Below, in pieces: positions 31,441 through 61,372 of a stretch of DNA of 64,000 nucleotides. The DNA is from Streptomyces sp. NBC_00358 (GTDB lineage: Bacteria > Actinomycetota > Actinomycetes > Streptomycetales > Streptomycetaceae). A program made the translations under genes and the position numbers. Where the stretch lies: positions 930,001 through 994,000 of the forward strand of contig NZ_CP107976.1 in assembly GCF_036099295.1 (NCBI RefSeq), in the 5' to 3' direction. Under the pieces are notes generated by a model. That model was not told the origin of the DNA and made no database searches. It saw only the letters and a program-made list of their open reading frames with translations. Position 1 is the first letter of the stretch. Each line of letters opens with the position of its first letter.

Positions 31441-31456
31441 GAGTGTCGCCTTCCGG

Positions 31457-32566: not shown

Positions 32567-32581
32567 GGCTACTCCCTTGCC

Positions 32582-39239: not shown

Positions 39240-39313
39240 CGATCCGAAACCATGACGATCCGAGGCCAGCCGCTCTCCGCGGCCGGGTCGAGGCCGGAGA
39301 AGGGCAGCACACC

Positions 39314-41898: not shown

Positions 41899-43137
41899 TC
41901 AGGCCCGCCCGAGAACCAGCACCGCGTTCTGGCCGCCGAACCCGAACGAGGTGCTGACCGCCAGCTCGCCCGTGAGATCACGGGGAGCCTTGGCCACGAC
42001 GTCGATCTCGATCGCCGGATCCAGACTCTGCAGGTTCGCGGTGGGCGGCACGAGCCGGTGCTCCAGCGTGAGCGCGGTGACGGCCGCCTCGATGGCGCCG
42101 GCCGCCCCCAGCGAGTGGCCGACCACACCCTTCACGGACGTGACCGCCGGACCGTCGCCCAGCACCCGGCGCAGCATTCGGGCCTCCGTGACGTCGTTGA
42201 GCGGTGTCGCGGTGCCATGGGCGTTGACGTGCCCGATCTCGTCGGCGCCGACCCCCGCGTCGGCCAGGGCCGTGCGCAGCGCCAGTTCCGCGCCGCGGCC
42301 GTCCGGATCGGGAGCCGTGGCGTGATGGGCGTCGGCGCTGGCGCCGTACCCGCTGATCAGCGCGTGGACCGAACCGCCGCGCGCCCGAACGTCCGCGGGC
42401 CGCTCCAGGACCAGCACGGTCGCTCCCTCGGCGGGTACGAACCCGTCCCGGTCCACGTCGAAGGGGCGCGAGGCGTTGGCCGGGGCGTCGCGGCGGGCGG
42501 AGAGCGCGCCCATCTGGCTGAACCCGGCGACGATCGAGGGGATCAGGCAGGCCTCGGTGCCGCCGGTGATGACGACATCGCAGGTGCCGGCGCGCAGCAG
42601 TTCGCGAGCCGTGCCGATCGCGGTGGTGCCGGAGGCGCAGGCGGTGGACGTCACCAGGTTGGGACCCCGGGCCCCGCACTCCATGGCGATGTAACCGGCC
42701 GTCATGTTCACAGCGAGCATCGGAATCAGCATCGGGGAGACCTGGTCGAAGCCCTGGTCGAGCAGCACGTGGTGCTGCTTCTCCCAGGTGGCCGCTCCTC
42801 CGATGCCGCTGCCGATGACCACGCCGACCCGGGCGCCGTCCCACACGGCCGTGTCCAGGCCGGCGTCGGCCAGCGCCTCGGCCGCGGCGGCCAGCGCGAA
42901 CTGGCTGCTGCGGTCGAGACGCCAGGCCTTGCGCCGGCCCAGGGCCTTCGCCGGGTCGAAGCCGGGCACATGACAGCCGAAGTCGGCGCGGGTGCCCGCC
43001 AGCGCGGGTACCTCGCTCGCCTCCGTCGTCTCGCCCCGCAGGATGCGCGTCCAGGAGGCGGCGGTGCCGATGCCCGCCGCGGTCACCATGCCGATCCCGG
43101 TGACCGCGGCGGCGAACGGGGGCCTGACGTCCGGCAT
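41899..43137 (-). CDS. beta-ketoacyl-ACP synthase (KAS I/II, FabF-like)
   Basis: 412-aa condensing enzyme. Active-site STACASGT with Cys167, catalytic His in NAHGTATPLND (about 303) and in GVVGHSLGAAG (about 340), and C-terminal FGFGGQNA. It elongates ACP-bound acyl chains. Its start overlaps the ACP stop (TGATG). With the ACP and KAS III upstream it forms a small dedicated fatty-chain module, probably building the alkyl part of the product (inference). Last gene of the ten-gene operon. Confidence 0.95.
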   Translation of the reverse strand: MPDVRPPFAAAVTGIGMVTAAGIGTAASWTRILRGETTEASEVPALAGTRADFGCHVPGFDPAKALGRRKAWRLDRSSQFALAAAAEALADAGLDTAVWDGARVGVVIGSGIGGAATWEKQHHVLLDQGFDQVSPMLIPMLAVNMTAGYIAMECGARGPNLVTSTACASGTTAIGTARELLRAGTCDVVITGGTEACLIPSIVAGFSQMGALSARRDAPANASRPFDVDRDGFVPAEGATVLVLERPADVRARGGSVHALISGYGASADAHHATAPDPDGRGAELALRTALADAGVGADEIGHVNAHGTATPLNDVTEARMLRRVLGDGPAVTSVKGVVGHSLGAAGAIEAAVTALTLEHRLVPPTANLQSLDPAIEIDVVAKAPRDLTGELAVSTSFGFGGQNAVLVLGRA

Positions 43138-43394
43138 CAGCCCGTCACTCCCGGCTGCCCGGCGGCCAGCTTCTTCTCCACCATCGCCGCCGCGTCGGCC
43201 ACCGTGGCGTCCAGTTCCAGCTCGTCGTCCTTGATGGGGACGCCGAACTCCTGCTGGGCCGCCAGGCCCAGTTCGACCAGGGCGAGCGAGTCCACTTCGA
43301 GTTTGCGGAAGGTCACTTCGGGCGAGATCTCGTCGGCCTCCAGGCCGCAGACCCGCACCAGCAGGGCGACCAGACGATCGCTCGTGTCACTCAT
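43137..43394 (-). CDS. acyl carrier protein
   Basis: 85-aa ACP. The phosphopantetheine site is LEVDSLALVELG with Ser36. The chain has the four-helix pattern and the acidic recognition helix II. GAGGAGAGG precedes the ATG at 43392-43394. It should carry the chain made by the neighbouring KAS and KAS III. Confidence 0.95.
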   Translation of the reverse strand: MSDTSDRLVALLVRVCGLEADEISPEVTFRKLEVDSLALVELGLAAQQEFGVPIKDDELELDATVADAAAMVEKKLAAGQPGVTG

Positions 43395-43444
43395 GGGATG
43401 CCTCTCCTCGGTTGTCCGTCGTGATGTGCCGGTCGGCCGGTGAT

Positions 43445-43523
43445 GTACGAGGTGGTCGGTGGGATATGCGGTGATCAGTGGCGTACGAGGTGGTGGGCGG
43501 TGCCCGGTCGGTGGCGTACGAGG
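43445..43523. repeat. degenerate ~35-bp direct repeats
   Basis: GTACGAGG recurs at 43445, 43483 and 43516 within related GTGGTCGGTG-like sequence, in the 137-bp gap between the KAS III and ACP genes. This is the only sizeable gap in the otherwise overlapping operon. Meaning unknown. Confidence 0.6.
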
Positions 43524-43531
43524 GGTGCGGT

Positions 43532-44536
43532 TCAGTACGCCTCGACGGCCGGCCAGCGGACCGTGCAGGCCCCCCAGGTCAGCCCGCCGCCGAACGCGGT
43601 CATCAGCACCCGGTGGCCGGGGCGCAGCGTGCCGCTCGCGACGGCGTCGGCGAGGGCCAGCGGCACGGAGGCGGCCGAGGTGTTGCCGACGCGGTCGAGG
43701 TGGATCGCGCACCGCTCCCGTTCCACGCCCATCCAGTCGGCCAGGGCGTGCATGATCCGTACGTTGGCCTGGTGGGCGACGAGCAGGTCCACGTCCGCCA
43801 CCGACCAGCCCGCGCCGCGCAGGGCCTGTTCGGAGGACTCGGCCATGGATTCCACCGCGTGCCGGAACACGGCCCGGCCCGCCATCCGGAAGTAGGGGTC
43901 GCTCTGTGCGGCCGTCGCCGCCCGGAACGGGTCGCGGGACCCGCCGGAGGGCACCTGGATCAGGTCGTCCGCCGATCCGTCGGAGCCGAGCTGGAAGGGG
44001 CCGAGCGCACCGGGTTCGTCCGGCCGGCCCGCCCGCAGTACGACCGCTCCGGCGCCGTCACCGAAGATGGACCGGGTGGAGCGGTCACCGGGGTCGAGGA
44101 TGCGGGAGAACGCGTCCGCGCCGATGACCAGGACGGAGTCGGCGGACCCGGCGGCGATGAACCCGGCCGCGGTCGCCAGCCCGTAGAGGAAACCGGTGCA
44201 GACGGCGGCCACGTCGAACGCCGGGACCGGGCCGAGCCCGAGCCGGGCCGCGACGCGGGGCGCGGTCGCCGGGAGGGGGTGGTCGGGGGTCGCCGTGGCC
44301 AGCACGACCGCGTCCACCGCGATGTCCGACGCGGACTTCAGCGCCCGCGCCCCCGCCTCGACGGCGAGGTCCGAGGTGGCGAGCTCCTCGTCGAGGATGT
44401 GGCGGGCGCCGATGCCGGTGCGCGTGCGGATCCAGGCGTCCGAGGTGTCGAGTTCCCGGGCGAGCTCGTCGTTGGTGACCGCCCTGGGCGGCAGCCAGGA
44501 ACCGAGTCCGCACACGACTGCGGCCCGAGCGGTCAC
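43532..44536 (-). CDS. beta-ketoacyl-ACP synthase III (FabH-like)
   Basis: 334-aa starter-condensing enzyme. Nucleophile Cys113 in AAVCTGFLYG, catalytic His in VAHQANVRI (about 250) and Asn in VGNTSAASVP (about 280). It starts chains by joining an acyl-CoA primer to malonyl-ACP. The GTG start overlaps the upstream di-iron gene stop (GTGA). Confidence 0.95.
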   Translation of the reverse strand: MTARAAVVCGLGSWLPPRAVTNDELARELDTSDAWIRTRTGIGARHILDEELATSDLAVEAGARALKSASDIAVDAVVLATATPDHPLPATAPRVAARLGLGPVPAFDVAAVCTGFLYGLATAAGFIAAGSADSVLVIGADAFSRILDPGDRSTRSIFGDGAGAVVLRAGRPDEPGALGPFQLGSDGSADDLIQVPSGGSRDPFRAATAAQSDPYFRMAGRAVFRHAVESMAESSEQALRGAGWSVADVDLLVAHQANVRIMHALADWMGVERERCAIHLDRVGNTSAASVPLALADAVASGTLRPGHRVLMTAFGGGLTWGACTVRWPAVEAY

Positions 44537-45492
44537 AGGGCTTCCTCGAGGCCCATGTAGGCGAGCCGCGCGCGCTGCATCCTGTCCGCCCATTCGTGCG
44601 CCGTCCCGGCCCGCTCCTCGGCGGTGGTGTCGACCAGCCGCCGCCCCGGCCAGGCCTCGTAGTCGCCGACCAGTTCGCCGTGCCGTTCGAGGCCCTGCTG
44701 GAACAGCTCCTCGCGGCGCATCACCAGATCCTGCGAGGGCAGCTTCTCCCACAGGGCGTACCCCTCCTGGATCAGCTCCAGGATCCGCGGCTTGTCCTCG
44801 GGGTGGCGCAGCAGGTGCTCCCGGGCGATGGAGCTGCCGACGGTGAGGTGCCGGATCTCGTCGATGCCCGCGCCGCGCTCGATGTCGGCCGCCGCCGGAT
44901 CGAAGACCCGCCACTTGCGCTCGCTCAGTTCCGCGGAGGGGGCGAGAACCCCCTCGACGAGCACCGTGAGGATCACGACGCCACCGATGAAGTCCCGCCG
45001 GTCGCGCAGGGCGCGCAGGCCGAACTCCTCCAGCGGCACCAGGATGCGCTCGCTGTCGGCGGCGGCCAGCCGGTCGATCGCCGTCCACAGGTCGTCCTCG
45101 GCGATGCCGAGCGACAGAAGATGGCGCCGGAAGACCATCGCGTGCCGTGCCTCGTCGAGCAGTTGCGTCGAGTAGAACTCCAGCGAGGCGTTGTCGGGGG
45201 CCACCGCCACCATGTACGCGATGGCACGGGTGGCCTTCTCCTCCGCGATGGAGCGGAAGGCCAGTTCCTGGCTGAGCGCGCTGTTCAGCGGCCCCGGCTC
45301 GGCCATCACCGGCAACGGTCGTACGTCGTCGGGGTGGCCGAGGGGATGGCCGCGCAGCGTGCCCTGCGGCACGGACCGCAGCCAGTAGCGCAGATCGCAG
45401 GAGTCGGCGGTCAGTTCCAGGTTCATGGCGCCGTCGACGAGTGAGGGCGCGTGCTCCCAGTCGGCTTCGGGTGGCGTGCTGGACACGGTCAT
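44533..45492 (-). CDS. VlmB-like ferritin-fold di-iron protein
   Basis: 319-aa helical protein with a complete two-iron ligand set: Glu84 or Glu85 in SIAEEKATR, DEARH (Glu114, His117), Glu180 in VLVEGV, and DEIRH (Glu212, His215). The fold matches ferritin-like oxygenases, and its place among vlm homologues suggests VlmB, a valanimycin protein required after seryl transfer. It probably performs an oxygen-dependent step in N-N or azoxy formation (inference). Overlaps both neighbours by 4 nt. Confidence 0.75.
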   Translation of the reverse strand: MTVSSTPPEADWEHAPSLVDGAMNLELTADSCDLRYWLRSVPQGTLRGHPLGHPDDVRPLPVMAEPGPLNSALSQELAFRSIAEEKATRAIAYMVAVAPDNASLEFYSTQLLDEARHAMVFRRHLLSLGIAEDDLWTAIDRLAAADSERILVPLEEFGLRALRDRRDFIGGVVILTVLVEGVLAPSAELSERKWRVFDPAAADIERGAGIDEIRHLTVGSSIAREHLLRHPEDKPRILELIQEGYALWEKLPSQDLVMRREELFQQGLERHGELVGDYEAWPGRRLVDTTAEERAGTAHEWADRMQRARLAYMGLEEAL

Positions 45493-46046
45493 CGATCCCT
45501 TTCCACGGACAGCGGGCGGACGGCGGCACGGCCGGGGCTCAGTTCCTCGGCGAAGTTGACCAGTGGGGTCCCGGTGCTCCGGGAGCCGCAGGAGACACCG
45601 GCGAAGATCACCCGGTGGTCGCCGACGGCGGTGCTGCGCAGGATGTGGCACTCCAGCCAGGCGACGGCGTCCTTCAGCCGGGGCACCCCGTGCGAGCTCA
45701 GTCCCGCCCAGGTATCGGACGGCAGTTGGGCCAGTCCCCGGGGGCGCTTCTTCGAGGCGAAGTGGTCGGCGAGGAAGGCCTGTCCGGACGCGAGGCCGTT
45801 GACGACGAAGCGGTCGCGTGCCAGCAGGGACCGCAGACCCCGGCTGTCCTCCCGCAGGGCCACGGAGATGATCGGCGGCTCCATGGACGCGAGCGCCACC
45901 GTGCTCACCGTGACCCCTTCGACGGTGTCGGGATCGCCGCAGGTCAGTACCGCGACACCGGTCGCCAGGCGGCGGACGGTGGCCCGCGTCTGCTGCGCGC
46001 CGGCCGCGGTGCCCGTCCGCCGCTCGGCGGCGAGGGTCTCCCTCAT
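45489..46046 (-). CDS. flavin reductase (VlmR-like)
   Basis: 185-aa flavin:NAD(P)H reductase of the FMN-binding split-barrel group. Helix RRLATGVAVLTC, VSTVALASMEPPIISVAL and the RFVVNGLASGQ and HRVIFAGV segments are typical. It should supply reduced FAD or FMN to the acyl-CoA-dehydrogenase-fold N-hydroxylase in the same operon, as VlmR does for VlmH. Overlaps both neighbours as ATGA. Confidence 0.9.
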   Translation of the reverse strand: MRETLAAERRTGTAAGAQQTRATVRRLATGVAVLTCGDPDTVEGVTVSTVALASMEPPIISVALREDSRGLRSLLARDRFVVNGLASGQAFLADHFASKKRPRGLAQLPSDTWAGLSSHGVPRLKDAVAWLECHILRSTAVGDHRVIFAGVSCGSRSTGTPLVNFAEELSPGRAAVRPLSVERDR

Positions 46047-46534
46047 GACGTCCTCGCGTCCAGGTGGGCGGACACGGGGGCGAGCCGCTCCTCCTTGCCC
46101 TCGAACCCGGCGCGGAAGCGCAGGTACCCGGGGTCCTCGACCGGCTCGAACGGCAGCCGGAAGCTCTTGAGGAAGTTCCCGAACAGGGCACGGTCGCCGA
46201 AGAGATGGATCGGCAGGGCGAGCAGCGCCCACTCGGCACCGAACGCCCAGATCCACACCAGGGCCACGAGACCTTCGGTGACGAGGCTGTGCATGACGTT
46301 GTAGAGCACGTAGTAGACCTTGGAGATGTCCTTGGTCGTACTGCGGTGGTAGGCGATCGCTCCGGGGATGTAGCCGATCAGGTCGATGTAGAGGAACAGG
46401 CCGATGAAGGCCGGCCAGGACACGTCTCCCAGGTGGTCGAAGAACAGTACGGCGGCCACCACCAGGCCCAGGGCGTACTCGGCGCGGTGCAGTTTCGCCG
46501 TGGTCGGCGTCTCGAAGAGGTTCTTGGCGTCCAT
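46043..46534 (-). CDS. small polytopic membrane protein (possible VlmO equivalent)
   Basis: 163-aa membrane protein with about four hydrophobic helices between residues 20 and 120 and a basic hydrophilic tail. Polar residues within the helices include Asp34, His35, Asp51, His63, His82 and His115, a pattern sometimes seen in membrane metal sites, though no family is recognised. The valanimycin cluster needs an integral membrane protein, VlmO, at a late step; equivalence is a guess. Coupled to both neighbours (TGATG and ATGA). Confidence 0.6.
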   Translation of the reverse strand: MDAKNLFETPTTAKLHRAEYALGLVVAAVLFFDHLGDVSWPAFIGLFLYIDLIGYIPGAIAYHRSTTKDISKVYYVLYNVMHSLVTEGLVALVWIWAFGAEWALLALPIHLFGDRALFGNFLKSFRLPFEPVEDPGYLRFRAGFEGKEERLAPVSAHLDARTS

Positions 46535-48483: not shown

Positions 48484-49611
48484 TCACGCGATCCGCAGCG
48501 GTCGGCCGGCCAGGTGCTCCAGGAGCGGGCCGGCGATGCTCGACCTGGACGGCGGGTGGAAGGACAGTCCGTGCGAGGCCGCCGCCAGGTAGGCGACGTC
48601 CGGCGAGCCGATGAACGCCATCCCGCCGAGGAGTTCGACGGCCTGGTGCACGGACTCCGCGAGGGCGTCCTGCGCCGCGTACCGCGCGATCAGGGACTTG
48701 GCGAGCGCCTCGTCGCCGGTCTCCCCCTGCTCGATCATCCGCGCCATGCCCTCCAGGAGCAGTGCCGCGCCCTCCAGCCGGCACAGCAGCCGCGCCCGTT
48801 CGGAGTCGGTGCCCCGGCCGCGCTCCACGACGCGTTCCGCCAGGGCACTCGCCATCCCGAGGTACGAACCGGAGATGAGCAGTTCGAACCAGATGAACCC
48901 GACCGTCTGGAGGTTGTCCATGGCCCCCTGGTCGGCCTGCTCCGTCCGCATGAGCTGCTGCTCGCTGATGAACACGTCCTCCAGCCGCAGCTCGTCGCTC
49001 TCCGCGCCCGCGAGGACGGAGTTCGCCCAGAACGGATGCACCGACAGGCCGTCGACGCCCTTGGGCACCAGCAGGACGGCCGAGGCGTCCTCGCCGGGCA
49101 CGGCCACGCTCGCGGTGAGCAGATCCATCGACCGCGACAGACTGCATGGCTTCTTCGAGCCGTTGATCCGGTAGCCGCCCTCGACGACGGTGGCCCGCAT
49201 GGACGGGGTCAGGATGCCCTGGCCGGTGCGGCCCTCGGCGAAGCCGGAGGCGACCAGCAGGTTCTGTTCCGCGATGCCCTCCAGGAGAGCCCACTCGGCA
49301 CCGCCGGCCTGCAGGCTGTCGGCCAGGGTGAACAGGGTGGCCACGGAGAAGTGGTGCATGGTCGTGGCCACCGCCAGCGAAGGCGCCGCCGCTCCGAGGG
49401 CGCGGGTGACCTGCAGTGCCTCCCGGGGACCCGCGCCTGAGCCGGCGTAGGTCTTGGGGATGACCAGTTGGGGTCCCCCGTGACGACGGAACAGGGCGAT
49501 GGCGGGAGAGTCCGGGGACTCCAGTTCGGTCAGCGGGAACTCGCCGAGTCCGGCGAGCAGTCCGGGCATGAATTTCTCGCACGTCTCGCGCGCGGCATCC
49601 AATGGGCGCAT
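48484..49611 (-). CDS. acyl-CoA-dehydrogenase-fold amine N-hydroxylase (VlmH-like)
   Basis: 375-aa flavoprotein of the acyl-CoA dehydrogenase superfamily. LVIPKTYAGSGAGPREAL and GYRINGSKKPCSLS show the fold. The usual C-terminal YRD...EGT region with the catalytic Glu is replaced by AAASHGLSFHPPSRSS, which favours a reduced-flavin monooxygenase over a dehydrogenase. VlmH, the isobutylamine N-hydroxylase of valanimycin, belongs here and uses a separate reductase, also present in this operon. Likely substrate: a long-chain amine. AGGAG precedes the ATG at 49609-49611. Confidence 0.82.
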   Translation of the reverse strand: MRPLDAARETCEKFMPGLLAGLGEFPLTELESPDSPAIALFRRHGGPQLVIPKTYAGSGAGPREALQVTRALGAAAPSLAVATTMHHFSVATLFTLADSLQAGGAEWALLEGIAEQNLLVASGFAEGRTGQGILTPSMRATVVEGGYRINGSKKPCSLSRSMDLLTASVAVPGEDASAVLLVPKGVDGLSVHPFWANSVLAGAESDELRLEDVFISEQQLMRTEQADQGAMDNLQTVGFIWFELLISGSYLGMASALAERVVERGRGTDSERARLLCRLEGAALLLEGMARMIEQGETGDEALAKSLIARYAAQDALAESVHQAVELLGGMAFIGSPDVAYLAAASHGLSFHPPSRSSIAGPLLEHLAGRPLRIA

Positions 49612-49643: not shown

Positions 49644-51320
49644 TCAGCACTCTCGCCGGTCCATGGCCCGCCAGGCACCGAAGACCGCGTCACGGGGACG
49701 CGACCCGGTGCTCACGCTGAGCCCCTGGACGTGCGAGGTGCGCAGGATCGGGTAGTTGGCCTCGCCGAAGACGCCGCCGGTCAGGCCCGTACCGCCGTGC
49801 GTCGGCAGATAGGGGAGGAAACCGATGTGCGAGTCGTTCACCTTCAGGATTCCGCCGGTGGTGATCCGGGCGACGAACGCGTCGACGACCGCCCGGTCGC
49901 GGGCCCATACGGAATTCCGCAGGCCGTAGGCGTTGGAGTTGACGAAGTCGACGAAACTGTCGATGAGTTCGGCGTCCGGTGCCGGTTCCGCGACCACCAC
50001 CGGGATCAGCGGAAAGAAGGTCTCGTCGCGTACGGCGTCGATCTCCCGGGCGTCCTCCAGTCCGCGGACGACGACCACCGTGGGCTCCAGGAAGATGCCG
50101 GCCGTGTCGCGGGTCTCGTCGATCTGCATGGCGTGCCCGCCGCAGGCGATCTCCGCGCCGTTCTCCACGGCGTCCCGCAGGCAGGAGAAGAACTTCTCGT
50201 TGCGCAGGACGGGTGTCAGGAGGACATCCTCCTCCCAGGCGTATCCGGGGCGGATATGACCGGCAAGACGGACGATGTTCGCGATGAGCCGATCGGCGGC
50301 CTCCGGGTGCACGAGCACCTGGTTCGGAATCATGCAGAGTTGTCCCGAACCGAAGAAGCTCTCGGTGATCGCCTCCGCCGCCAGTTCGAGATCGGCGTCC
50401 TTCCAGACCACGACGGCGTCGTTTCCGGCCAGTTCCAGGATGGGCTTCTTGCCGGCCGCGATGCATCGTTCCTCGAAGGTGATGCCGTTCTCGCTGCTCC
50501 CGAAGTACATGATGTCGTCGACCTTCGGGCTCCGCAGCCAGGCGGCGAGCATGGGTGCCGGGTCGCCGCACACCACGTTCAGGGTGCCGGGCGGGGCGCC
50601 GATCTCCTCCAGTGCCGGGACGACGATCTCGTGCAGGACGTACATCGCCCCCAGCGGGGCGCTGCGCGGTGCGCGGACGACCAGGGAGTTGCCCGCCATG
50701 ATCGCGGTGGCGCCCAGCAGGGTGCTGGACAGCGGTGCGTTCTGCGGCGGGTTGAGGCACACCACGCCGTCCGGGAGCCTGCGCACGGCCAGTTGCCGGT
50801 CGTTCTGCCGGAACTCCTGGAGCATCTGGGACCGGTAGAAGCCCAGCGACTGCGGCCCGAAGCAGTCGAGCATGCCGGACACCTGCCAGCGGGCCAGCGG
50901 CAGCGGATGTCCCTCGTCCACGAGGACGTCCACGATCTCCTGGGCGCGCTCCACGATGCGCCGGTGGATCTGACGGCCCAGCTCGGTGAGCCGTACGTCG
51001 AGCGGGAACGCCGCCCAGCGCGGAGCGGCCTCGGCCGCGGCCTCCACGGCCAGCGCGACGGTGTCGCGGTCCGCCTTGGCCACCTTGGCCACGATGCTGC
51101 CGGGCAGTTCGTCGGGCTCCCGCTGCCCGCGCTCCAGCTTGCGCTTGAGGCTGAGGCTCGCGAACGCGTCGTCGAGCAGTGCGTCGGCGCCGACGACATA
51201 GACCCACTCACCGCCGTCCAGGCATTCTCCGTTCACATAGGACCGGTACGTACGCAACCGCCGAGCGGAAATCCCGCCGCGTCGCCGGCCGGCCGGAGCG
51301 GACAACTGAACGCTGGTCAC
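49644..51320 (-). CDS. aldehyde-dehydrogenase-fold enzyme
   Basis: 558-aa ALDH-superfamily enzyme. The general-base region ILELAGND (Glu), the catalytic Cys in FGSGQLCMIPNQ and the C-terminal NDSHIGFLPYLPTHGGTG are recognisable. It is longer than usual (about 480): a charged segment near residues 40-75 (LKRKLERGQREPDELPG) is inserted in the N-terminal strand region. It could reduce an acyl thioester to aldehyde before transamination, or oxidise an aldehyde; sequence cannot decide. GTG start behind a G-rich site. First gene of the ten-gene operon, divergent from the VlmA-like gene. Confidence 0.85.
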   Translation of the reverse strand: MTSVQLSAPAGRRRGGISARRLRTYRSYVNGECLDGGEWVYVVGADALLDDAFASLSLKRKLERGQREPDELPGSIVAKVAKADRDTVALAVEAAAEAAPRWAAFPLDVRLTELGRQIHRRIVERAQEIVDVLVDEGHPLPLARWQVSGMLDCFGPQSLGFYRSQMLQEFRQNDRQLAVRRLPDGVVCLNPPQNAPLSSTLLGATAIMAGNSLVVRAPRSAPLGAMYVLHEIVVPALEEIGAPPGTLNVVCGDPAPMLAAWLRSPKVDDIMYFGSSENGITFEERCIAAGKKPILELAGNDAVVVWKDADLELAAEAITESFFGSGQLCMIPNQVLVHPEAADRLIANIVRLAGHIRPGYAWEEDVLLTPVLRNEKFFSCLRDAVENGAEIACGGHAMQIDETRDTAGIFLEPTVVVVRGLEDAREIDAVRDETFFPLIPVVVAEPAPDAELIDSFVDFVNSNAYGLRNSVWARDRAVVDAFVARITTGGILKVNDSHIGFLPYLPTHGGTGLTGGVFGEANYPILRTSHVQGLSVSTGSRPRDAVFGAWRAMDRREC

Positions 51321-51384
51321 CCCAGGTCCCCCGCCTTCTGTAGACCAACTTCGACTGATTCGACGGCAACCTTCGCCAAGGCCT

Positions 51385-51413
51385 CTGAGAAAGCGCTGAG
51401 ACGGTTCTGAGAC
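51385..51413. promoter_or_regulatory. three CTGAGA direct repeats at 11-bp period (SARP-operator-like)
   Basis: CTGAGA occurs at 51385, 51396 and 51407, exactly 11 bp apart, in the 167-bp divergent region between the ten-gene operon and the VlmA-like gene. SARP activators bind heptamer direct repeats with this period just upstream of the -10 box, so this is a good candidate site for the SARP at 41103. Confidence 0.75.
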
Positions 51414-51487
51414 CGTTGTTTCAGTCGGCTTCACGTCCCCGCTGAAAGAGTTCCGGGCGTTCCTGCAGATCCTCGAAGGGCGGTGCG

Positions 51488-52519
51488 GTGAATCGATCAC
51501 GGATACGGCGGACGGCGGCACCCGCGGCGGACGCGAGCGACGGCGTCCACTCCGGTTTGCTGTCGGCCGTGGAGAAGCACGCCGACAATCCGAGCGCGTT
51601 CCTCGCGCTCAATGAGGGGAACCAGTACTTCCGCGACAGGGGTGGCGACGGCTTCGTCGTCTACCGGCGTTCCGGCCACCATCTCGTCCAGTTCGGCGGG
51701 GTGTTCGCCGCTCCGGAACAACGGGCGTCCCTCCTGCGTTCGTTCCGCTCCTTCGCGCGTGAACAGCGCTGCACGATCGTGGGAATCCAGTTGCAGCGCG
51801 AGGATCTCGGCCTGTTCCACGAAGAGGGTTTCACCATCAACCAGGTGGGCTCGTCGTATTCGCTGGACCTCACCGGATTCAGCCTGCGCGGTTCGAAGTT
51901 CGTGAAGCTGCGCAACAAGATCTCCCGCGCCCGGCGCAGCGGTCTGACGGTCGCCGAGACGGACTGGGAGACGTGCGCGCGGAGCATCGAGCGGATCGAC
52001 AAGGCGTGGCTCCGTTCAAAGGGCCGGCACGTCAAGGAGATCGAGTTCCTGGTGGGCCAACTGGGCGGCCCCGCGCAGCAGCACCGGCGGCTCTTCGTCG
52101 GCACGCTGGACTCCGGACCGGTCTCGTACATCTCCTACAGTCCCGCCCACGGCAGCCGGCCGGGCTGGCTGCACGACCTCAGCAGGCGGCTGCCGGACGC
52201 CCCGCCGGGGGTGATGGAGGCGGTCAACCTGCACGCGACGGAGACCTTCATCAAGGAGGGCGCCGACTGGCTGCACTTCGGCTTCACCCCGTTCACCGGC
52301 CTCGCCCCGGAGCACGAGCCGGCCGGGGCGAGCAGGATGACGGGGCGGTTCATGCGGCTGCTCGCCGAGCACGGGCACGCCGTCTACCCGGCCTCGACCC
52401 AGCTCGCGTACAAGGAGAAGTGGGGTCCGCAGGTGGTGCTGCCGGAGTATCTCGCCTTCGAGCACGGCGCCAGTCTCGGAGCGATCTGGCAGGTCCTGCG
52501 GGTCACCAAGTCGGTGTGA
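51488..52519 (+). CDS. VlmA-like aminoacyl-tRNA-dependent transferase (MprF/DUF2156 fold)
   Basis: 343-aa soluble protein related to the C-terminal transferase domain of lysyl-phosphatidylglycerol synthase: two GNAT-like lobes, with LNEGNQYFRDRGGDGFVVY, FHEEGFTINQVG, KLRNKISRARRSG and the late FGFTPF and YKEKWGP segments. VlmA of valanimycin has this fold and moves serine from seryl-tRNA to an alkylhydroxylamine oxygen. No membrane segments are present. GTG start with GAAGGG upstream. In this cluster it should act on the N-hydroxylated long-chain amine; its tRNA donor may be the tRNA-like gene at 59058. Confidence 0.83.
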   Translation: MNRSRIRRTAAPAADASDGVHSGLLSAVEKHADNPSAFLALNEGNQYFRDRGGDGFVVYRRSGHHLVQFGGVFAAPEQRASLLRSFRSFAREQRCTIVGIQLQREDLGLFHEEGFTINQVGSSYSLDLTGFSLRGSKFVKLRNKISRARRSGLTVAETDWETCARSIERIDKAWLRSKGRHVKEIEFLVGQLGGPAQQHRRLFVGTLDSGPVSYISYSPAHGSRPGWLHDLSRRLPDAPPGVMEAVNLHATETFIKEGADWLHFGFTPFTGLAPEHEPAGASRMTGRFMRLLAEHGHAVYPASTQLAYKEKWGPQVVLPEYLAFEHGASLGAIWQVLRVTKSV

Positions 52520-55616: not shown

Positions 55617-57101
55617 TCATGCGGTCGTCCGCTCCAGCGCCGCGTTCAGGAGCTTGGTCACCTCCTGGGCGGAGGCCGTCTCCAGAGCGGCCATCGCGTC
55701 GGCGGTGTCCGCGGTCCCTCCGGTGCCGAGGAACTTCTCGCGCACCAGGGAGGCGGCCGGCGGTCCGCCCACCGCTCCTACCGGAACGTCCACCTGCCGG
55801 CTCACCGAACGACCGTCGCGGAACTCGACGGTCACCCGCGCCCCCGTCACCTTCCGCGCGGAACGGAAGTCCTCGCTCGGCGCCTCCAGCTCGCCCACCA
55901 GATCCACCAGCCACTGCCCGTCGTCCTTCCAGCGCGCGCCGAACGGGCGCAGCCACTCGGCGGCCCGGGGGCCCGCCTGCCGGAGCGCCTCGCCGAAGGG
56001 AACCTCGCTGTGGAACAGGTCGTAGGTCATCCGTTCGTCGAGGCGCGGCTCGACGAGTTCCGCGAGCCGCCACCGCTCCTCGTCCGCGACTCCCGGGGCG
56101 GCGAAGTCCCCGGTGGTCAGGTCACCGGTGAGCAGCACGGTCGCCAGCAGGTACGGCAGCGCGAACACCAGCGCGCTCACCGGCGAGTCGGCGCCCCGCA
56201 GATACACGCCCGCCTGGGCGTTCACCAGCATCGTGTAGAGCGAGGTGTCCACGGTGATCCCGGTGATGTCCCGGGCCCGTACCGGCCCCAGCTCCCGGTG
56301 GAGTTCGAGTCCGCAGTCGACCGCCGCGTCCATGCCAGGACCACCGGGGTGCACCTTGAACGACGTCGTATGGGTGTGCCAGCGCCGCCCGAGCCCGGAG
56401 GTCACGGCGGCGGGCAGCGGCACGGCGGCGAACCGGGACAGGAATCCGTCCGGGTGTTCCAGGATCTCCTTGCTGCCGGTGAAGCCCGCCGCGGCGGCGT
56501 CGCACGCGTCCAGGCCCACGGAGACGGGCGTCGAGGCGCTGAAGACCTTGGCGTCACCGCCGAGGAACCCGATCGGCACGGTGCGCGGCGGCAGCCCGAG
56601 GCCGAGGCCGATCGCGTCGACCCAGCGCCGCGCGGTCGCGTTCTCGCCCCGCAGCCGCCCGGCGATGGCGCCGATCACATGGGTGAAGGTGGCGCTCTGC
56701 CCGCGGAAGGGCCCCAGGGTGGCCGCCGCCGTGACGCGCGCGGCGCACTCGTTGGCCACGACGACCGAGGTCAGCAGCGCGCGCCCGTCCAGCTCCTGGC
56801 TCTGCGCGTACGCCATGGGCACGGCCACGGTCGAGTTGGACAGGTGCCCGGCGAACGCCGTGTCGTCGAAGTGCAGCCACGACCCGAGTCCGGCGAGCAC
56901 GAAGGCGGCGCGCCGCGGATCGGGCTGCAGCGGCGGTCCGAAGCCCGCGGCCAGTTTCCGGCCCAGCGGATGCGTCGCGCCGATGCGCATGGCCGCGCAC
57001 TGGGACAGTATCTGCAGCTTTGCTATGTCCACGACATCCGGCGGTATGTCCTCGAACCGCAGAGCATGGGCCCATTCCGAGAGTTCTTCGGTGAGGGTCA
57101 T
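55617..57101 (-). CDS. MmgE/PrpD-family protein (VlmK-like)
   Basis: 494-aa protein of the MmgE/PrpD (2-methylcitrate dehydratase) family: HFDDTAFAGHLSNSTVAVPM near residue 80, then LGLPPRTVPIGFLGGDAKVF and the central KVHPGGPGMDA segment. VlmK of valanimycin belongs to this family and eliminates phosphate from phosphorylated valanimycin hydrate to give the alkene. The kinase partner (VlmJ-like) is encoded at 59204. Expected role: dehydration of the serine-derived hydroxymethyl group. AAGGAG precedes the ATG. Divergent from the methyltransferase gene. Confidence 0.85.
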   Translation of the reverse strand: MTLTEELSEWAHALRFEDIPPDVVDIAKLQILSQCAAMRIGATHPLGRKLAAGFGPPLQPDPRRAAFVLAGLGSWLHFDDTAFAGHLSNSTVAVPMAYAQSQELDGRALLTSVVVANECAARVTAAATLGPFRGQSATFTHVIGAIAGRLRGENATARRWVDAIGLGLGLPPRTVPIGFLGGDAKVFSASTPVSVGLDACDAAAAGFTGSKEILEHPDGFLSRFAAVPLPAAVTSGLGRRWHTHTTSFKVHPGGPGMDAAVDCGLELHRELGPVRARDITGITVDTSLYTMLVNAQAGVYLRGADSPVSALVFALPYLLATVLLTGDLTTGDFAAPGVADEERWRLAELVEPRLDERMTYDLFHSEVPFGEALRQAGPRAAEWLRPFGARWKDDGQWLVDLVGELEAPSEDFRSARKVTGARVTVEFRDGRSVSRQVDVPVGAVGGPPAASLVREKFLGTGGTADTADAMAALETASAQEVTKLLNAALERTTA

Positions 57102-57358: not shown

Positions 57359-58273
57359 ATGCTGACACCGCACCAGCCGACCCGAATGCAATCGGGTCTG
57401 CCGAGCGACACCGCGTACCTCACCGCACGCGCCCGCGCCGCCGACGCGATCGTCGAACCCGCGCGCCGGCTGCTCGACGACCGCTTCGCCTCCCTGTTCG
57501 TCACCGAGCCCCCGCTCCCCCGGACGTCCGAGGAGGCGATCGCCCGGCTGACCGCGATGGACTCCGCGCACGGCGGCTTCATCGCGGAGATCCTGCTGCG
57601 CCAGCGGTTCTTCGAGGACCAGCTGATACGCGCGGTCGCCACCGGCATCCGCCAGGTGGTGCTGCTGGGCGCCGGCTACGACACCACCGCGCTGCGGATG
57701 CCCGGATACGACCGGCTGCGCTACTTCGAGGTCGACCACCCCGCCACCCAGCGCGCGAAGCTCGAAACCCTGGTGGAGGCGGCCGTCGACGCCCCGTCGG
57801 TGACCTACGTCCCGGTGGACTTCGAGGCGGGCGACTCGCTCACCGAGGCCCTCGCCGACGCGGGGTTCGTGAGCGGCCGGCCGTGCGTCGTCGGCTGGCT
57901 GGGCGTCACCTTCTTCCTGCGCCGCGACGCCTTCGAGCGCACCCTGCACCACCTCACCGACCTGTGCGCACCAGGGAGCAGCCTCGTCTTCGACTACATG
58001 GACGAGAGCGTCGTCGACGGCACCACCCGCTACGAGGGCGCCCTGTCGATGGCCCGCAAGGTGGGCGCGCAGGGCGAGCCGTACGTCACCGGGCTGACCG
58101 CGGAGACCGCGTCCGAGGCCGCTCGCCAGGCGGGCTTCTGGCCGACCGAGGAGGTGCGGGTCCCCGAGCTCGTACGGCGCTACGGCGGCGCCGATCCCTA
58201 CTGCAAGGACGACGACTTCATGGGCCTGATCGCGGCCGAACGCGCCGCGCGGGAGAACGGAGAAACGACATGA
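57359..58273 (+). CDS. SAM-dependent O-methyltransferase (LCM/PPM family)
   Basis: 304-aa methyltransferase of the leucine-carboxyl-methyltransferase-like group. SAM site VVLLGAGYDTTALR (100-113), FEVDHPATQ, and GWLGVTFFLRRDAFERTL. Family members usually methylate carboxyl groups or hydroxyls. In this cluster a methyl ester on the serine-derived carboxylate is plausible. AAAGGAA lies 6 nt before the ATG. The stop overlaps the SGNH hydrolase start as ATGA, so methylation and esterase-like functions are coupled. Confidence 0.88.
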   Translation: MLTPHQPTRMQSGLPSDTAYLTARARAADAIVEPARRLLDDRFASLFVTEPPLPRTSEEAIARLTAMDSAHGGFIAEILLRQRFFEDQLIRAVATGIRQVVLLGAGYDTTALRMPGYDRLRYFEVDHPATQRAKLETLVEAAVDAPSVTYVPVDFEAGDSLTEALADAGFVSGRPCVVGWLGVTFFLRRDAFERTLHHLTDLCAPGSSLVFDYMDESVVDGTTRYEGALSMARKVGAQGEPYVTGLTAETASEAARQAGFWPTEEVRVPELVRRYGGADPYCKDDDFMGLIAAERAARENGETT

Positions 58274-58965
58274 CCACGACCGAAGGACCCACCGCCGAGG
58301 AGACCGACGCGCATGTCCTGCCCCCCGAGGAGGTCGACCGGTTGCTGGGCAAGGCCCCCTGGAAGCGCTTCGCGGTCATCGGGGACAGCCTCGCCGAAGG
58401 ACTCGGGGAGTCCTCCCCCGGCTACGCGGACTCGCCCTGGGCGGAGCGGGTCCTGGAGGCGCTGCGCCGGGTCGATCCCGGTATGGAGTACCTGAACCTG
58501 GGTGTACGCCATCTCAAGGCGGCCCAGGTGCGGGCGGGACAGCTCGAAGAGGCCCTGGACTTCCGTCCGGACCTCGCCTCGGTGGTGTGCGGCGGCAACG
58601 ACATGCTCGCCCGCGACTTCTCGGCGGAAGCCGTGGAGGCCGAACTCGACGCGATGGTAAGGCCGTTGCGCGAGCGGGGCGCCGACGTCTTCGTCTTCAC
58701 CATCCAGGACATCACGAAGGTCTTCCCCGAACAGCTCGGCGGCGGAGGCCTGAGCGGTCGCATCGAGATCTTCAACGACCAGGTGCGCAAGGTGGCCGCT
58801 CGGCACGGTGCCCTCGTCATCGACATGTGGGCCCACCCCACCAGCAGCTCCCGCAGCGTCTTCAGCGCGGACATGCTGCACGCCTCGATGCGCGGCCACG
58901 CCGTGCTGGCGTCAGCGGTGTTCGCCCAGCTCGGCGCGCATCTGGCGGCGTCGCAGGGCCACTGA
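58270..58965 (+). CDS. SGNH/GDSL hydrolase, catalytically intact
   Basis: 231-aa cytoplasmic hydrolase. Block I VIGDSLAEG (Ser40), block III CGGND (Asn109), and DMLH giving Asp200-His203. Short N-terminal extension without signal peptide. It is the intact counterpart of the dead paralogue at 52634. May hydrolyse an ester or thioester intermediate such as the O-seryl or acyl-carrier link (inference). Coupled to the methyltransferase gene. Confidence 0.88.
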   Translation: MTTTEGPTAEETDAHVLPPEEVDRLLGKAPWKRFAVIGDSLAEGLGESSPGYADSPWAERVLEALRRVDPGMEYLNLGVRHLKAAQVRAGQLEEALDFRPDLASVVCGGNDMLARDFSAEAVEAELDAMVRPLRERGADVFVFTIQDITKVFPEQLGGGGLSGRIEIFNDQVRKVAARHGALVIDMWAHPTSSSRSVFSADMLHASMRGHAVLASAVFAQLGAHLAASQGH

Positions 58966-59057: not shown

Positions 59058-59149
59058 GGAGAGATTCCCGTAGCGGCCCAACGGGGATCCGGGAAGCATC
59101 CCGGACCGGGGCTTCATCGCCCTCGCAGGTTCGAATCCTGCTCTCTCCG
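59058..59149 (+). tRNA. tRNA-Ser-like RNA with degenerate anticodon arm
   Basis: A full class II cloverleaf. Acceptor GGAGAGA (59058-59064) pairs perfectly with TCTCTCC (59142-59148), then discriminator G (59149) and CCG. D-arm: CCCG/CGGG with an 11-nt loop containing GG. T-arm: GCAGG TTCGAAT CCTGC (59125-59141), perfect. Variable arm: GGGC TTCATC GCCC (59109-59122). These are the elements seryl-tRNA synthetase reads (G73, G2-C71, A3-U70, long variable arm). The anticodon arm is abnormal: CCGGG/CCCGG with a 6-nt loop AAGCAT and no U33, so decoding is unlikely. Encoded in the same direction as its neighbours, inside the azoxy-type cluster. Confidence 0.82.
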
Positions 59150-59203: not shown

Positions 59204-60157
59204 ATGCAGCCAGGCCGGTGGGCGGACTCCGGTGTACTGATCACCAACCCCCTCGCCGGGGCGGGACGCGTCGACCTCGTCGACGCCGGCACACTGGCCA
59301 GGTCCTGCGCGGAACTGGTCGGGGACCTCACGGTGATCGGGACCAGGTATCGCGGCCATGCCGAGGAGATCGCGGTCAAGGCCGTCGCCGACGGCGCCGA
59401 CCTGGTGGTCGTGGCAGGCGGCGACGGCACCACCCGCGAGGTGGCCTCCGGGCTCGTCCGGGCCGGCGTGGAGCGGTCCGGGGCGTTGCTGCCCGCGCTG
59501 TTCTGCGTACCCGTCGGCACCGCCAACTCCTTCTACCGCGAGATCTGGTCCGACCGTCCCTGGCGACAGACGCTGGCCGAGGCGCTGTCCGGGCCCGCAC
59601 GCCGGGTACGGCACATCGACGTGGCGCACATTCAGGAGAGCGACACCTACGCCCTGCTCGGCACGGGAACGGGTGTCGTCGCCGAGGTTCTCGCCGCCGC
59701 CAACCGCCTCACCGAGCTGGCCGGCCGCGACCGCTACCGGCAGGCGGTGGCCCGGGTCGTGGCGGCGCACAGGCCCTACCCCGCGCGGATAACGGTGGAC
59801 GGCGAGGTGGTGCACGACGGGACCGTCCAGCTCACCAACATAGGTGGCGGCCGGTACCGCGCCGGGCAGTTCAAACTGATGCCGCGCTCCGTCCTCGACG
59901 ACGGACTGCTGGACCTGTGCGCGTTCGACGGCACCTGCGACCTGATCGAACTGCTGAACCTGACCCGCGAGGGACAGCACGTCGAACGCCCCGGGGTGAT
60001 CTACACCCGGGGCCGGCACTTCGTCGTGGAGCGCACCGACGGCGCGCCCCTGTCCCTGGAGTACGACGGCGAGATGGCGACCGGGGAGCGGTCCCGCTGC
60101 ACAGTGGGTCTCCGCGCCGGCGTCCTGCCGTTTCTCGCACCGCCGCACCGGGCGTGA
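59204..60157 (+). CDS. diacylglycerol-kinase-family protein (VlmJ-like)
   Basis: 317-aa kinase of the DAGK/YegS family: NPLAGAGR near the N-terminus, the ATP site VVAGGDGTTREV (69-80), VPVGTANSF and the C-terminal LSLEYDGEMA. VlmJ of valanimycin is in this family and phosphorylates valanimycin hydrate so that VlmK can eliminate the phosphate; the VlmK-like gene is at 55617. GAGGAG lies 7 nt before the ATG. Directly downstream of the tRNA-like gene. Confidence 0.85.
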   Translation: MQPGRWADSGVLITNPLAGAGRVDLVDAGTLARSCAELVGDLTVIGTRYRGHAEEIAVKAVADGADLVVVAGGDGTTREVASGLVRAGVERSGALLPALFCVPVGTANSFYREIWSDRPWRQTLAEALSGPARRVRHIDVAHIQESDTYALLGTGTGVVAEVLAAANRLTELAGRDRYRQAVARVVAAHRPYPARITVDGEVVHDGTVQLTNIGGGRYRAGQFKLMPRSVLDDGLLDLCAFDGTCDLIELLNLTREGQHVERPGVIYTRGRHFVVERTDGAPLSLEYDGEMATGERSRCTVGLRAGVLPFLAPPHRA

Positions 60158-60199: not shown

Positions 60200-61372
60200 A
60201 TGCACGGTGCCGAGCGCACCGCCGACGACCGGTGGGTGCTGCCCACGGCAGGCGACACCCACTTCACCTGGAACTACGACGAGGGCCGGGACCGGCTGCT
60301 GAGCCTGTACCAGAAGGGCAAGGACAAGCAGTGGGACAGCACGGCGCGCATCGCCTGGGAGACCGAGGTCGACCCGTACGACGCGCTCGGCACTCCGGAG
60401 AACACGCTCGCCCTGTACGGCTCCCGGCAGTACGCGAAACTGAACGAACGCGAGCGGCGGGAAATGCGCCGCCACATGGCGTCCTGGGAATTCAGCCAGT
60501 TCCTGCACGGTGAACAGGGGGCGATGATCTGCTCGGCGCGGATCGTCGAATCGGTCCCCGATCTCGACTCGAAGTTCTATGCCGCGACCCAGGTGATGGA
60601 CGAGGCCCGGCATGCCGAGATCTTCTCCCGTTTCCTGAAGGAGAAGATCGGGATGGAATACCCGATCAACTCCCATCTGAAGAGCCTGCTCGGCGACTCC
60701 CTCTCGGATTCACGGTGGGACATGCCGTATCTCGGAATGCAGGTGCTGATCGAGGGTCTGGCGCTCGCGGCGTTCGGAATTCTCCGGGACAAGACGAACA
60801 AGCCGCTGCCGAAGCAGATCCTCGCCTACGTCATGCAGGACGAGGCCCGGCACGTCGCCTTCGGCAGGCTGGCCCTTCGGGACTACTACGCGGAGCTGAC
60901 CTCCCGGGAGAGGGCCGAGCGCGAGGAGTTCGTGGTCGAGGGCTGCTACCTCATGCGGGACCGCTTCCGGATGCAGGAGGTCTGGGAGAACCTCGGTTTC
61001 GACATGGCCGAGTGCATGGAGTACATGGACAAGGGCCCCCGCATGCAGGCGTTCCGCTCCCGCCTCTTCACCCGGATCGTCCCCTGCGTGAAGGACATCG
61101 GGCTGTGGGGACCGGCCGTGAAGAGGGCGTACGAGGACATGGGTGTCCTCGACATGGCCAAGAGCGATCTGCTCGCCCTGATGGCCTCGGACGAGGCGCA
61201 GGCCGAGTTGCTGGACCGCGAGCGCCGCGAGGAGCGCGAGCGCGAGAACCACGAACTGGCGGTCCGTGTCGCCGAGGTGGACGCGGCTGTCGCGGCAGGG
61301 GCGGAGGGACCCGTGGGGGCCGACGGAGCGACGGGGACCAGGGGTACGGCGCAGACCAGGGACACGGCCTGA
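60200..61372 (+). CDS. second ferritin-fold di-iron oxygenase
   Basis: 390-aa helical protein with a textbook di-iron site: Glu105 (FLHGEQG), DEARH (Glu135, His138), Glu185 (VLIEGLA) and DEARH (Glu215, His218). It differs clearly from the VlmB-like protein (44533) outside the motifs. The last ~60 residues are charged, then Ala/Gly/Thr-rich. Probably an oxygen-activating step on nitrogen or on the alkyl chain, for example desaturation or N-oxidation (inference). GGAGGAG lies 6 nt before the ATG; 42 bp after the kinase gene. Confidence 0.82.
   Translation: MHGAERTADDRWVLPTAGDTHFTWNYDEGRDRLLSLYQKGKDKQWDSTARIAWETEVDPYDALGTPENTLALYGSRQYAKLNERERREMRRHMASWEFSQFLHGEQGAMICSARIVESVPDLDSKFYAATQVMDEARHAEIFSRFLKEKIGMEYPINSHLKSLLGDSLSDSRWDMPYLGMQVLIEGLALAAFGILRDKTNKPLPKQILAYVMQDEARHVAFGRLALRDYYAELTSRERAEREEFVVEGCYLMRDRFRMQEVWENLGFDMAECMEYMDKGPRMQAFRSRLFTRIVPCVKDIGLWGPAVKRAYEDMGVLDMAKSDLLALMASDEAQAELLDRERREERERENHELAVRVAEVDAAVAAGAEGPVGADGATGTRGTAQTRDTA

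What the first reader, a model, noticed from the sequence alone, without database searches (positions are those of the whole stretch)
59058..59149. Dedicated seryl-tRNA-like RNA inside an azoxy-type biosynthetic cluster
Seen directly: a 92-nt class II cloverleaf with a perfect 7-bp acceptor stem, G73, a perfect 5-bp T-stem with TTCGAAT loop, and a GGGC/GCCC variable arm, but an anticodon arm with a 6-nt AAGCAT loop and no U33. Established: SerRS recognises tRNA-Ser through the long variable arm, acceptor pairs and G73, not the anticodon; VlmA of valanimycin uses seryl-tRNA to O-acylate an alkylhydroxylamine. Inference: this RNA is charged with serine but does not decode, so it acts as a private donor for the VlmA-like transferase (51488) and shields translation from competition. 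I do not know of a described example in an azoxy pathway.
Basis: partly seen in the sequence, partly recalled or inferred. Interest (0 to 1): 0.93.

Follow-up and report, generated by a model that had tools for sequence, protein, structure and literature searches.

The report
Private serine tRNA without an anticodon
A Streptomyces gene cluster that is predicted to make an azoxy compound carries a tRNA-shaped RNA whose anticodon arm has no standard loop; it belongs to a conserved RNA family found almost only in genomes that also hold the same transferase gene, and it likely hands serine to that enzyme instead of to the ribosome.

Summary
The RNA is real and not a lone oddity. At 59058-59149 lies a class II tRNA-like RNA with intact acceptor, D, variable and T arms and G73, but an anticodon arm closed by a short non-standard loop. 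A covariance model found at least 144 copies in 51 of 392 same-genus genomes; 49 of the 51 also have a close homologue of the window's VlmA-like transferase (2 of the 312 genomes without one have the RNA), and those two hold a more distant VlmA homologue beside the RNA. Thirty-nine copies lie under 1 kb upstream of VlmA, all divergent; others sit directly 5' of the VlmJ homologue, as in the window. Acceptor and T arms are 99% conserved; the anticodon arm drifts but stays mostly paired. Of the 51 genomes 26 also carry a divergent second seryl-tRNA synthetase, 24 of them within 27 kb. A genome whose length matches Kitasatospora setae, a source of studied valanimycin enzymes, has the RNA in two such clusters. 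A VlmA clade with azodyrecin-like gene content, where alanine is the proposed donor, lacks it (0 of 17). Best reading: a dedicated, non-translating seryl-tRNA donor for azoxy biosynthesis. Transcription and charging are untested. A review calls the diversion of Ser-tRNA into valanimycin unexplained.

The parts
59058..59149 (+). tRNA-like RNA (class II, serine type), standard anticodon loop lost
   Evidence: family model R1 90.5 bits, own tRNA-Ser genes 43-54 bits
59058..59064 (+). acceptor 5' strand GGAGAGA, pairs with 59142-59148; G73 at 59149
   Evidence: acceptor helix 99.9% paired in 96 distinct sequences
59088..59105 (+). anticodon-arm replacement TCCGGG-AAGCAT-CCCGGA, no 7-nt loop
   Evidence: canonical-arm test passed by 1 of 88 distinct family members and by 4 of 4 own tRNA-Ser
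59204..60157 (+). VlmJ-like kinase (DAGK_cat/YegS_C), ATG 54 nt after the RNA
60200..61372 (+). AurF-like diiron protein
   Evidence: AurF 57.3 bits
51488..52519 (+). VlmA-like transferase (LPG_synthase_C)
   Evidence: 206 bits; 80 of 392 genus genomes at E <= 1e-60
55617..57101 (-). VlmK-like MmgE/PrpD protein
46043..46534 (-). VlmO-like protein, 163 aa from the ATG at 46534
   Evidence: weak DUF4260 match, 13.2 bits, below cut-off; D51, H82, H110, D114 all present, the residues reported for VlmO (PMC11705231)
47036..48475 (-). aminotransferase
   Evidence: part of this frame matches aminotransferase models; start codon chosen from the translation printed, stop
48484..49611 (-). acyl-CoA-dehydrogenase-like protein, candidate VlmH-type N-hydroxylase
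   Evidence: Acyl-CoA_dh_M, below cut-off; homologues in VlmA loci
49644..51521 (-). aldehyde dehydrogenase
41899..45529 (-). KS, ACP and KAS III genes, probable acyl-chain supply
41103..41855 (+). SARP-type regulator
57359..58273 (+). SAM methyltransferase (LCM/TIGR00027)
58198..58965 (+). SGNH hydrolase, ends 93 nt before the RNA; true start not determined

Best explanation
This is a tRNA-like RNA of serine type, conserved beside azoxy-type biosynthesis genes, that has lost the standard decoding loop and is predicted to be charged with serine by a seryl-tRNA synthetase and used by the VlmA-like transferase as its private serine donor. Shown by sequence: the intact acceptor, D, variable and T arms, G73, the absence of a usable anticodon loop, the family-wide conservation, the genome-level link to VlmA homologues and the physical link of many copies to VlmA or VlmJ homologues. 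Inferred: transcription and processing, CCA addition, serylation (by the housekeeping enzyme in this genome, by a cluster-borne second SerRS in many relatives), inability to work in translation, and serine transfer from it to an alkylhydroxylamine. The arrangement would let the pathway draw serine without competing with the ribosome for Ser-tRNA.
For: Co-occurrence: RNA in 51 of 392 genus genomes, 49 of them with VlmA at E <= 1e-60; 31 have VlmA only, 310 neither (Fisher p 1.8e-38, not corrected for kinship). The two others, G168 and G300, have a 38-39% VlmA homologue 2.3-2.4 kb from the RNA. Family sample, partly the same genomes: RNA in 37 of 297, 8 of 17 genera, 36 of the 37 with VlmA. Phylum sample of 246: only G000; two weaker hits are ordinary tRNA-Ser. 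Position: 39 of 144 copies lie < 1 kb upstream of VlmA, all divergent; 15 of the 27 loci hold both VlmJ and an RNA, and in 12 of these the RNA is directly 5' of VlmJ on the same strand. Selection: acceptor and T arms 0.99 conserved, anticodon arm 0.62; all five pairing measures above all 500 shuffles. Canonical anticodon arm in 1 of 88 members, 4 of 4 own tRNA-Ser. Divergent second SerRS (24-41 bits to PF02403; housekeeping 82-95) in 26 of 51 RNA genomes and 0 of 29 others tested, 24 of 26 within 27 kb of VlmA or RNA; in the two examples given to Pfam the class II core domain is present. Serine against alanine: the 14-leaf VlmA clade of the window is RNA-bearing throughout; a 17-leaf clade with an Ady1-like methyltransferase (16 of 17) and no VlmJ, VlmK or second SerRS nearby has no RNA.
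Against: No transcript, CCA-tail or charging data. G000 has only the housekeeping SerRS by PF02403. Three VlmA loci grouping with serine-type ones (G337, G073, G086) have no model match above 48.3 bits in the genome, the range of ordinary tRNAs. 85 of 144 copies are over 25 kb from VlmA or on another contig, and the dispersed ones examined lie beside unrelated genes. The Vlm labels rest on family and neighbourhood, not on alignment to Vlm sequences. The association is partly inherited and the p value ignores that. Loop size from free folding is not decisive: 2 of 4 real tRNA-Ser also fold with small loops, and 2 of 4 family members folded freely did not give the cloverleaf.
Confidence: 0.84

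Rival explanations
1. It is a decaying tRNA-Ser pseudogene or an integration scar left by a mobile element.
For: Non-standard anticodon arm; no Rfam tRNA match at cut-off; tRNA genes are usual attachment sites (general knowledge); many dispersed copies in some genomes.
Against: Acceptor and T arms are 99% conserved and paired across 96 distinct sequences while the decoding arm varies most, the reverse of decay; tight genome-level link to VlmA; none of ten neighbours of dispersed copies in G365 given to Pfam is an integrase or transposase; two dispersed positions share neighbours between G365 and G327, by eye.
Confidence: 0.03
2. It is a working elongator tRNA with an unusual anticodon loop, serving translation of the cluster's genes or a rare codon.
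For: Tertiary positions such as U8, A14, G18, G19 and the TTC loop are mostly kept; ARAGORN assigns anticodons.
Against: ARAGORN assigns Ser, Glu, Asp, Leu or no anticodon to different members and misses others; folded loops are GCAA, GCGA, TTCG, GTCA and many others with no shared triplet; 1 of 88 passes a canonical-arm test.
Confidence: 0.03
3. It is a regulatory or competitor RNA: a seryl-tRNA decoy that titrates SerRS, EF-Tu or VlmA, or senses serine charging to gate the pathway.
For: High copy number in some genomes (11 in the genus sample; 14 in the family sample; both equal the number of candidates scored, so lower bounds) could suit a titrating RNA; many copies sit in the divergent region before VlmA.
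Against: A co-occurring divergent SerRS with its core domain and the conserved acceptor end point to a charged substrate; absent from the clade with azodyrecin-like gene content.
Confidence: 0.08

Closest known systems
Non-proteinogenic tRNA-Gly isoacceptors of Staphylococcus aureus used for the pentaglycine bridge
   Same: tRNA genes charged by the normal synthetase but poorly used in translation, feeding a non-ribosomal transferase (PMC4052509 and PMC8007984, passages).
   Different: According to those passages they escape through weak EF-Tu binding and altered positions 18-19; here positions 18-19 are GG in nearly all members and it is the decoding loop that is gone; the amino acid would be serine and the pathway is secondary metabolism.
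Valanimycin VlmA/VlmL system
   Same: VlmL makes Ser-tRNA and VlmA moves serine to isobutylhydroxylamine (PMC4052509 and PMC12945691, passages); homologues, at family level, of VlmA, H, O, J, K and a SARP, and in relatives a second SerRS.
   Different: No dedicated tRNA gene is mentioned in the passages read; the review says how Ser-tRNA is directed into the pathway is unknown. The window's genome has no second SerRS.
tRNA-Sec
   Same: Class II tRNA, serylated by SerRS and kept apart from normal elongation (PMC9976931, passages); best Rfam tRNA match (30.1 bits).
   Different: Below the Rfam cut-off; no UCA in the loop; linked to VlmA. That bacterial tRNA-Sec has an 8-bp acceptor against 7 here is recalled.

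Membership tests
Canonical elongator tRNA-Ser | variable arm, G73, G1-C72 and G2-C71 | tested here: met
   pairs 1 and 2 G-C in 96 of 96, G73 in all; identity elements from PMC9976931 (passages)
Canonical elongator tRNA-Ser | 5-bp anticodon stem and 7-nt loop with U33 | tested here: not met
   (1 of 88 family members; 4 of 4 own tRNA-Ser pass)
Canonical elongator tRNA-Ser | serylated in vivo and used by the ribosome | not testable with these tools
   no RNA data
tRNA-Sec | Rfam RF01852 score above cut-off | tested here: not met
   30.1 bits against 47
tRNA-Sec | UCA anticodon | tested here: not met
   loop AAGCAT
Dedicated non-translating donor tRNA (S. aureus tRNA-Gly kind) | charged but excluded from protein synthesis | not testable with these tools
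   inferred from lost anticodon loop and kept acceptor end
Dedicated non-translating donor tRNA (S. aureus tRNA-Gly kind) | tied to an aminoacyl-tRNA-dependent transferase | tested here: met
   genomic link only: 49 of 51 RNA genomes with VlmA at E <= 1e-60, the other 2
Valanimycin-type azoxy cluster | VlmO with D51, H82, H110, D114 | tested here: met
   residues from PMC11705231 (passages)
Valanimycin-type azoxy cluster | VlmA, VlmH, VlmJ, VlmK homologues | tested here: inconclusive
   right Pfam families; no Vlm sequence was on hand to align
Valanimycin-type azoxy cluster | cluster-borne SerRS (VlmL) | tested here: not met
   no second SerRS in G000 nor in the window
Valanimycin-type azoxy cluster | azoxy product | not testable with these tools
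   no chemistry

The most novel reading that the evidence does not exclude
Streptomycetaceae carry a whole class of anticodon-less seryl-tRNAs devoted to azoxy natural products, including the valanimycin pathway itself, and in about half of the genus genomes that carry the RNA it is paired with its own divergent SerRS (VlmL type), forming a natural private charging channel: a SerRS-tRNA pair that works outside the genetic code.
Probability: 0.55. Interest if true: 0.96.

Novelty: new variant of a known kind. Interest (0 to 1): 0.91.

Why it matters
It answers in outline a stated open question: how Ser-tRNA is steered from translation into an azoxy antibiotic (PMC4052509, passage read: still unknown). 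It gives a genome-mining marker that may separate clusters using serine from those using alanine, suggests why cluster-borne SerRS enzymes exist, and offers a naturally evolved candidate for an orthogonal SerRS-tRNA pair whose tRNA has no anticodon loop to interfere with decoding. Common tools hide these genes: no Rfam family reached its cut-off in the window or in six relatives' loci, and ARAGORN gives members scattered anticodons or misses them.

Tried and rejected
Pseudogene, integration scar, elongator tRNA and tRNA-Sec: see rivals and membership rows. A sigma-70-like promoter or a terminator near the RNA: none found, so own promoter or operon read-through is open. Loop size from free folding as proof of non-decoding: dropped as sole evidence (2 of 4 real tRNA-Ser also gave small loops; 2 of 4 members gave no cloverleaf). 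A first pattern for collecting copies was mistyped and found none; the corrected one still misses members, for example at L236, L241 and L242, so copy counts rest on the covariance model. Those counts are lower bounds where a genome reaches the number of candidates scored (11, 14). Gene picks of the base-composition script were wrong for several genes and were replaced by Pfam results. A worry that second-SerRS loci were not azoxy clusters, because 16 of 18 showed no VlmO match within 10 kb, was tested on seven RNA loci lacking VlmO: all seven have VlmO, VlmH, aminotransferase and aldehyde dehydrogenase homologues just beyond. Literature: eight searches aimed at this RNA or its pathway listed no report of it, judged from listings, and from passages in the papers opened; searches had other aims. 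Most subscription papers and all preprints are not held, so an earlier description cannot be excluded.

Full report
Observation. The sequence at 59058-59149 is a class II tRNA-like RNA: 7-bp acceptor, G73, 5-bp T stem with TTCGAAT, D arm, a variable arm, and an anticodon arm closed over AAGCAT or, with one more pair, AGCA. ARAGORN calls tRNA-Ser with an improvised anticodon. It folds more stably than 200 of 200 shuffles. No Rfam family reaches its cut-off in the window; tRNA-Sec is the best weak tRNA match. The genome's four tRNA-Ser genes that were fetched are ordinary.

Setting. The window lies at 930001-994000 of a 9.3-Mb single-contig genome, G000. Around the RNA are proteins of the families of the valanimycin enzymes: LPG_synthase_C (VlmA type), MmgE/PrpD (VlmK type), DAGK/YegS (VlmJ type), an acyl-CoA-dehydrogenase-like protein (VlmH type), and an aminotransferase, KS, ACP and KAS III. 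That VlmJ and VlmK are of the kinase and MmgE/PrpD kinds is recalled; their roles in phosphorylation and dehydration are in PMC9379638 and PMC4052509 (passages). The protein at 46043-46534 (-) has a weak DUF4260 match, the same weak match reported for Ady6 (PMC9379638), and carries D51, H82, H110 and D114, the residues reported as essential in VlmO (PMC11705231, passages). Vlm names here are by family and neighbourhood; no Vlm sequence was aligned. The RNA begins 93 nt after the SGNH hydrolase gene and ends 54 nt before the VlmJ-like start, all on the + strand.

A family. Regions of up to 20 kb around 80 of the 81 other VlmA places were fetched. A covariance model from nine members found 46 copies at 77 bits or more in these regions and the window; four own tRNA-Ser score 43-54 and the next match 18.8. 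Genus-wide, 144 copies in 51 of 392 genomes pass E <= 1e-12. In the family sample 37 of 297 genomes and 8 of 17 genera have it. In 246 genomes drawn across the phylum only G000 has it; two hits of 64-65 bits are ordinary tRNA-Ser. Ten of 32 named loci carry it within the 8-21 kb fetched, among them Streptomyces bohaiensis, S. djakartensis, S. pyxinae, S. scopuliridis and Kitasatospora griseola; the genome paper of another K. griseola strain reports a valanimycin-like cluster (PMC4384148, passage).

Link to VlmA. Of 392 genomes, 49 have both, 2 RNA only, 31 VlmA only, 310 neither. The two RNA-only genomes have a 38-39% VlmA homologue 2.3-2.4 kb from the RNA. In the family sample 36 of 37 RNA genomes have VlmA; the exception, G454, is 76% complete. 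Of 144 copies, 39 lie within 1 kb of VlmA, all upstream and divergent; 20 are at 1-25 kb, 25 further, and 60 on a contig without VlmA. Of 27 loci laid out, 15 hold both VlmJ and an RNA; in 12 the RNA is directly 5' of VlmJ on the same strand (in two of these, and in one of the three others, the RNA place comes since the pattern missed it). Tandem arrays of two to five occur.

Selection on structure. In 96 distinct sequences the acceptor, D, variable and T helices are 99-100% paired and the modelled anticodon-arm pairs 80%; all five pairing measures exceed all 500 shuffles and the slid controls. The alignment was fitted to the model, which favours the structure. Mean frequency of the commonest base is 0.99 in acceptor and T arms, 0.87 in the D arm, 0.70 in the variable arm, 0.62 in the anticodon arm. 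The anticodon-plus-variable segment is more stable than the mean of its shuffles in 88 of 88 distinct sequences. With the other arms held, the first loop has four bases in 55 of 88, GCAA most often, with no common triplet and none of seven bases. A canonical anticodon arm is found in 1 of 88, against 4 of 4 controls. So the parts that serve folding, processing and serylation are kept, and the part that serves decoding is not. That bacterial serine identity rests on the variable arm, G73 and acceptor pairs and not on the anticodon is from PMC9976931 (passages).

Second SerRS. Among 80 genomes searched with PF02403 (51 RNA-bearing, 25 with VlmA only, 4 with neither), all have a housekeeping-type enzyme; 26 of the 51, and none of the 29, also have a divergent SerRS scoring 24-41 bits; 24 of these 26 lie within 27 kb of VlmA or the RNA, the other two on contigs without either. 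Higher-scoring extra SerRS genes (53-86 bits) occur in both groups. In five examples against six housekeeping ones, N-terminal arms are 27% and cores 40% identical. One contig reads RNA, VlmJ, VlmK, SerRS (L246). Within 10 kb of VlmA, 16 of 18 second-SerRS loci showed no VlmO match, but in all seven RNA loci of this kind that were extended (five with the second SerRS found in the first region or its extension among those listed, the others likewise) VlmO, VlmH, aminotransferase and aldehyde dehydrogenase homologues follow just beyond. G000 has no second SerRS, so there the housekeeping enzyme would have to charge the RNA.

Serine against alanine. On a tree of 81 VlmA sequences the RNA follows clades. 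The window and 13 others form a clade, support 0.96, all RNA-bearing; a 17-leaf clade, support 1.00, has no RNA, a methyltransferase like the window's in 16 of 17, and no VlmJ, VlmK or second SerRS match within the fetched regions. That content resembles azodyrecin clusters, for which alanyl-tRNA is proposed as donor (PMC9379638, passages); the match to Ady1 itself was not tested. Over all loci, methyltransferase without VlmK occurs in 0 of 49 RNA-bearing and 20 of 31 RNA-free ones; VlmK, VlmJ or second SerRS in 29 of 49 and 2 of 31. Three loci of serine-type neighbourhood or position in the tree (G337, G073, G086) lack the RNA: best matches in these genomes are 46-48 bits, like ordinary tRNAs. 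This speaks against strict necessity.

Valanimycin. Genome G538 has one contig of 8,783,278 bases, the length given for Kitasatospora setae KM-6054/ATCC 33774 (PMC5813959 and PMC4210621, passages), listed as a source of studied valanimycin VlmO (PMC11705231). It has two VlmA loci: one with five tandem RNAs between VlmJ and VlmA, the other with VlmA, VlmH, VlmO, SerRS, SARP, VlmK, VlmJ and two RNAs 5' of VlmJ. The identification by length and the assignment of the second locus to valanimycin are inference.

Dispersed copies. Six genus genomes have 8 or more copies, all six with the divergent SerRS; those examined in three of them lie between unrelated genes and keep the conserved arms. Gene dosage is one guess; it is not tested.

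Verdict. A real, widespread, selected RNA family tied to VlmA-type transferases. The private-donor mechanism is the best explanation; charging, exclusion from translation and donor use are inferred. A review passage states that how Ser-tRNA reaches the valanimycin pathway is unknown, and eight searches listed in Tried and rejected showed no description of this RNA.

Noticed in passing
L155-L173 (G365, G327, G388): Dispersed, conserved copies of the RNA, 8 to at least 11 per genome, mostly in intergenic spots beside unrelated genes; two positions appear shared between G365 and G327.
   Followed up: partly
L246:2654-3916; L094:14874-16211: Divergent second seryl-tRNA synthetase with its core domain and a strongly altered N-terminal tRNA-binding arm in RNA-bearing clusters.
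   Followed up: partly
window 36259-41038: Three-gene set (SBP56-like, unknown 414 aa, nitrite/sulfite-reductase-like) has homologues at 54-74% identity in VlmA loci L109 and L114 (in L114 without the SBP56-like gene), so it may belong to some azoxy clusters.
   Followed up: no
window 29772-33880: ABC transporter with an NMT1-like binding protein next to an EF-Tu-type GTPase; may be sulfate or sulfonate assimilation.
   Followed up: no
L012, L013, L014 (G000 805366-805495, 8679152-8679281, 252151-252285): Three low-scoring tRNA matches elsewhere in the genome (29-45 bits to RF00005); ARAGORN calls nothing, Gly and Trp.
   Followed up: no
L232 (G454): RNA copies in a genome without VlmA at E <= 1e-60; assembly 76% complete.
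   Followed up: partly
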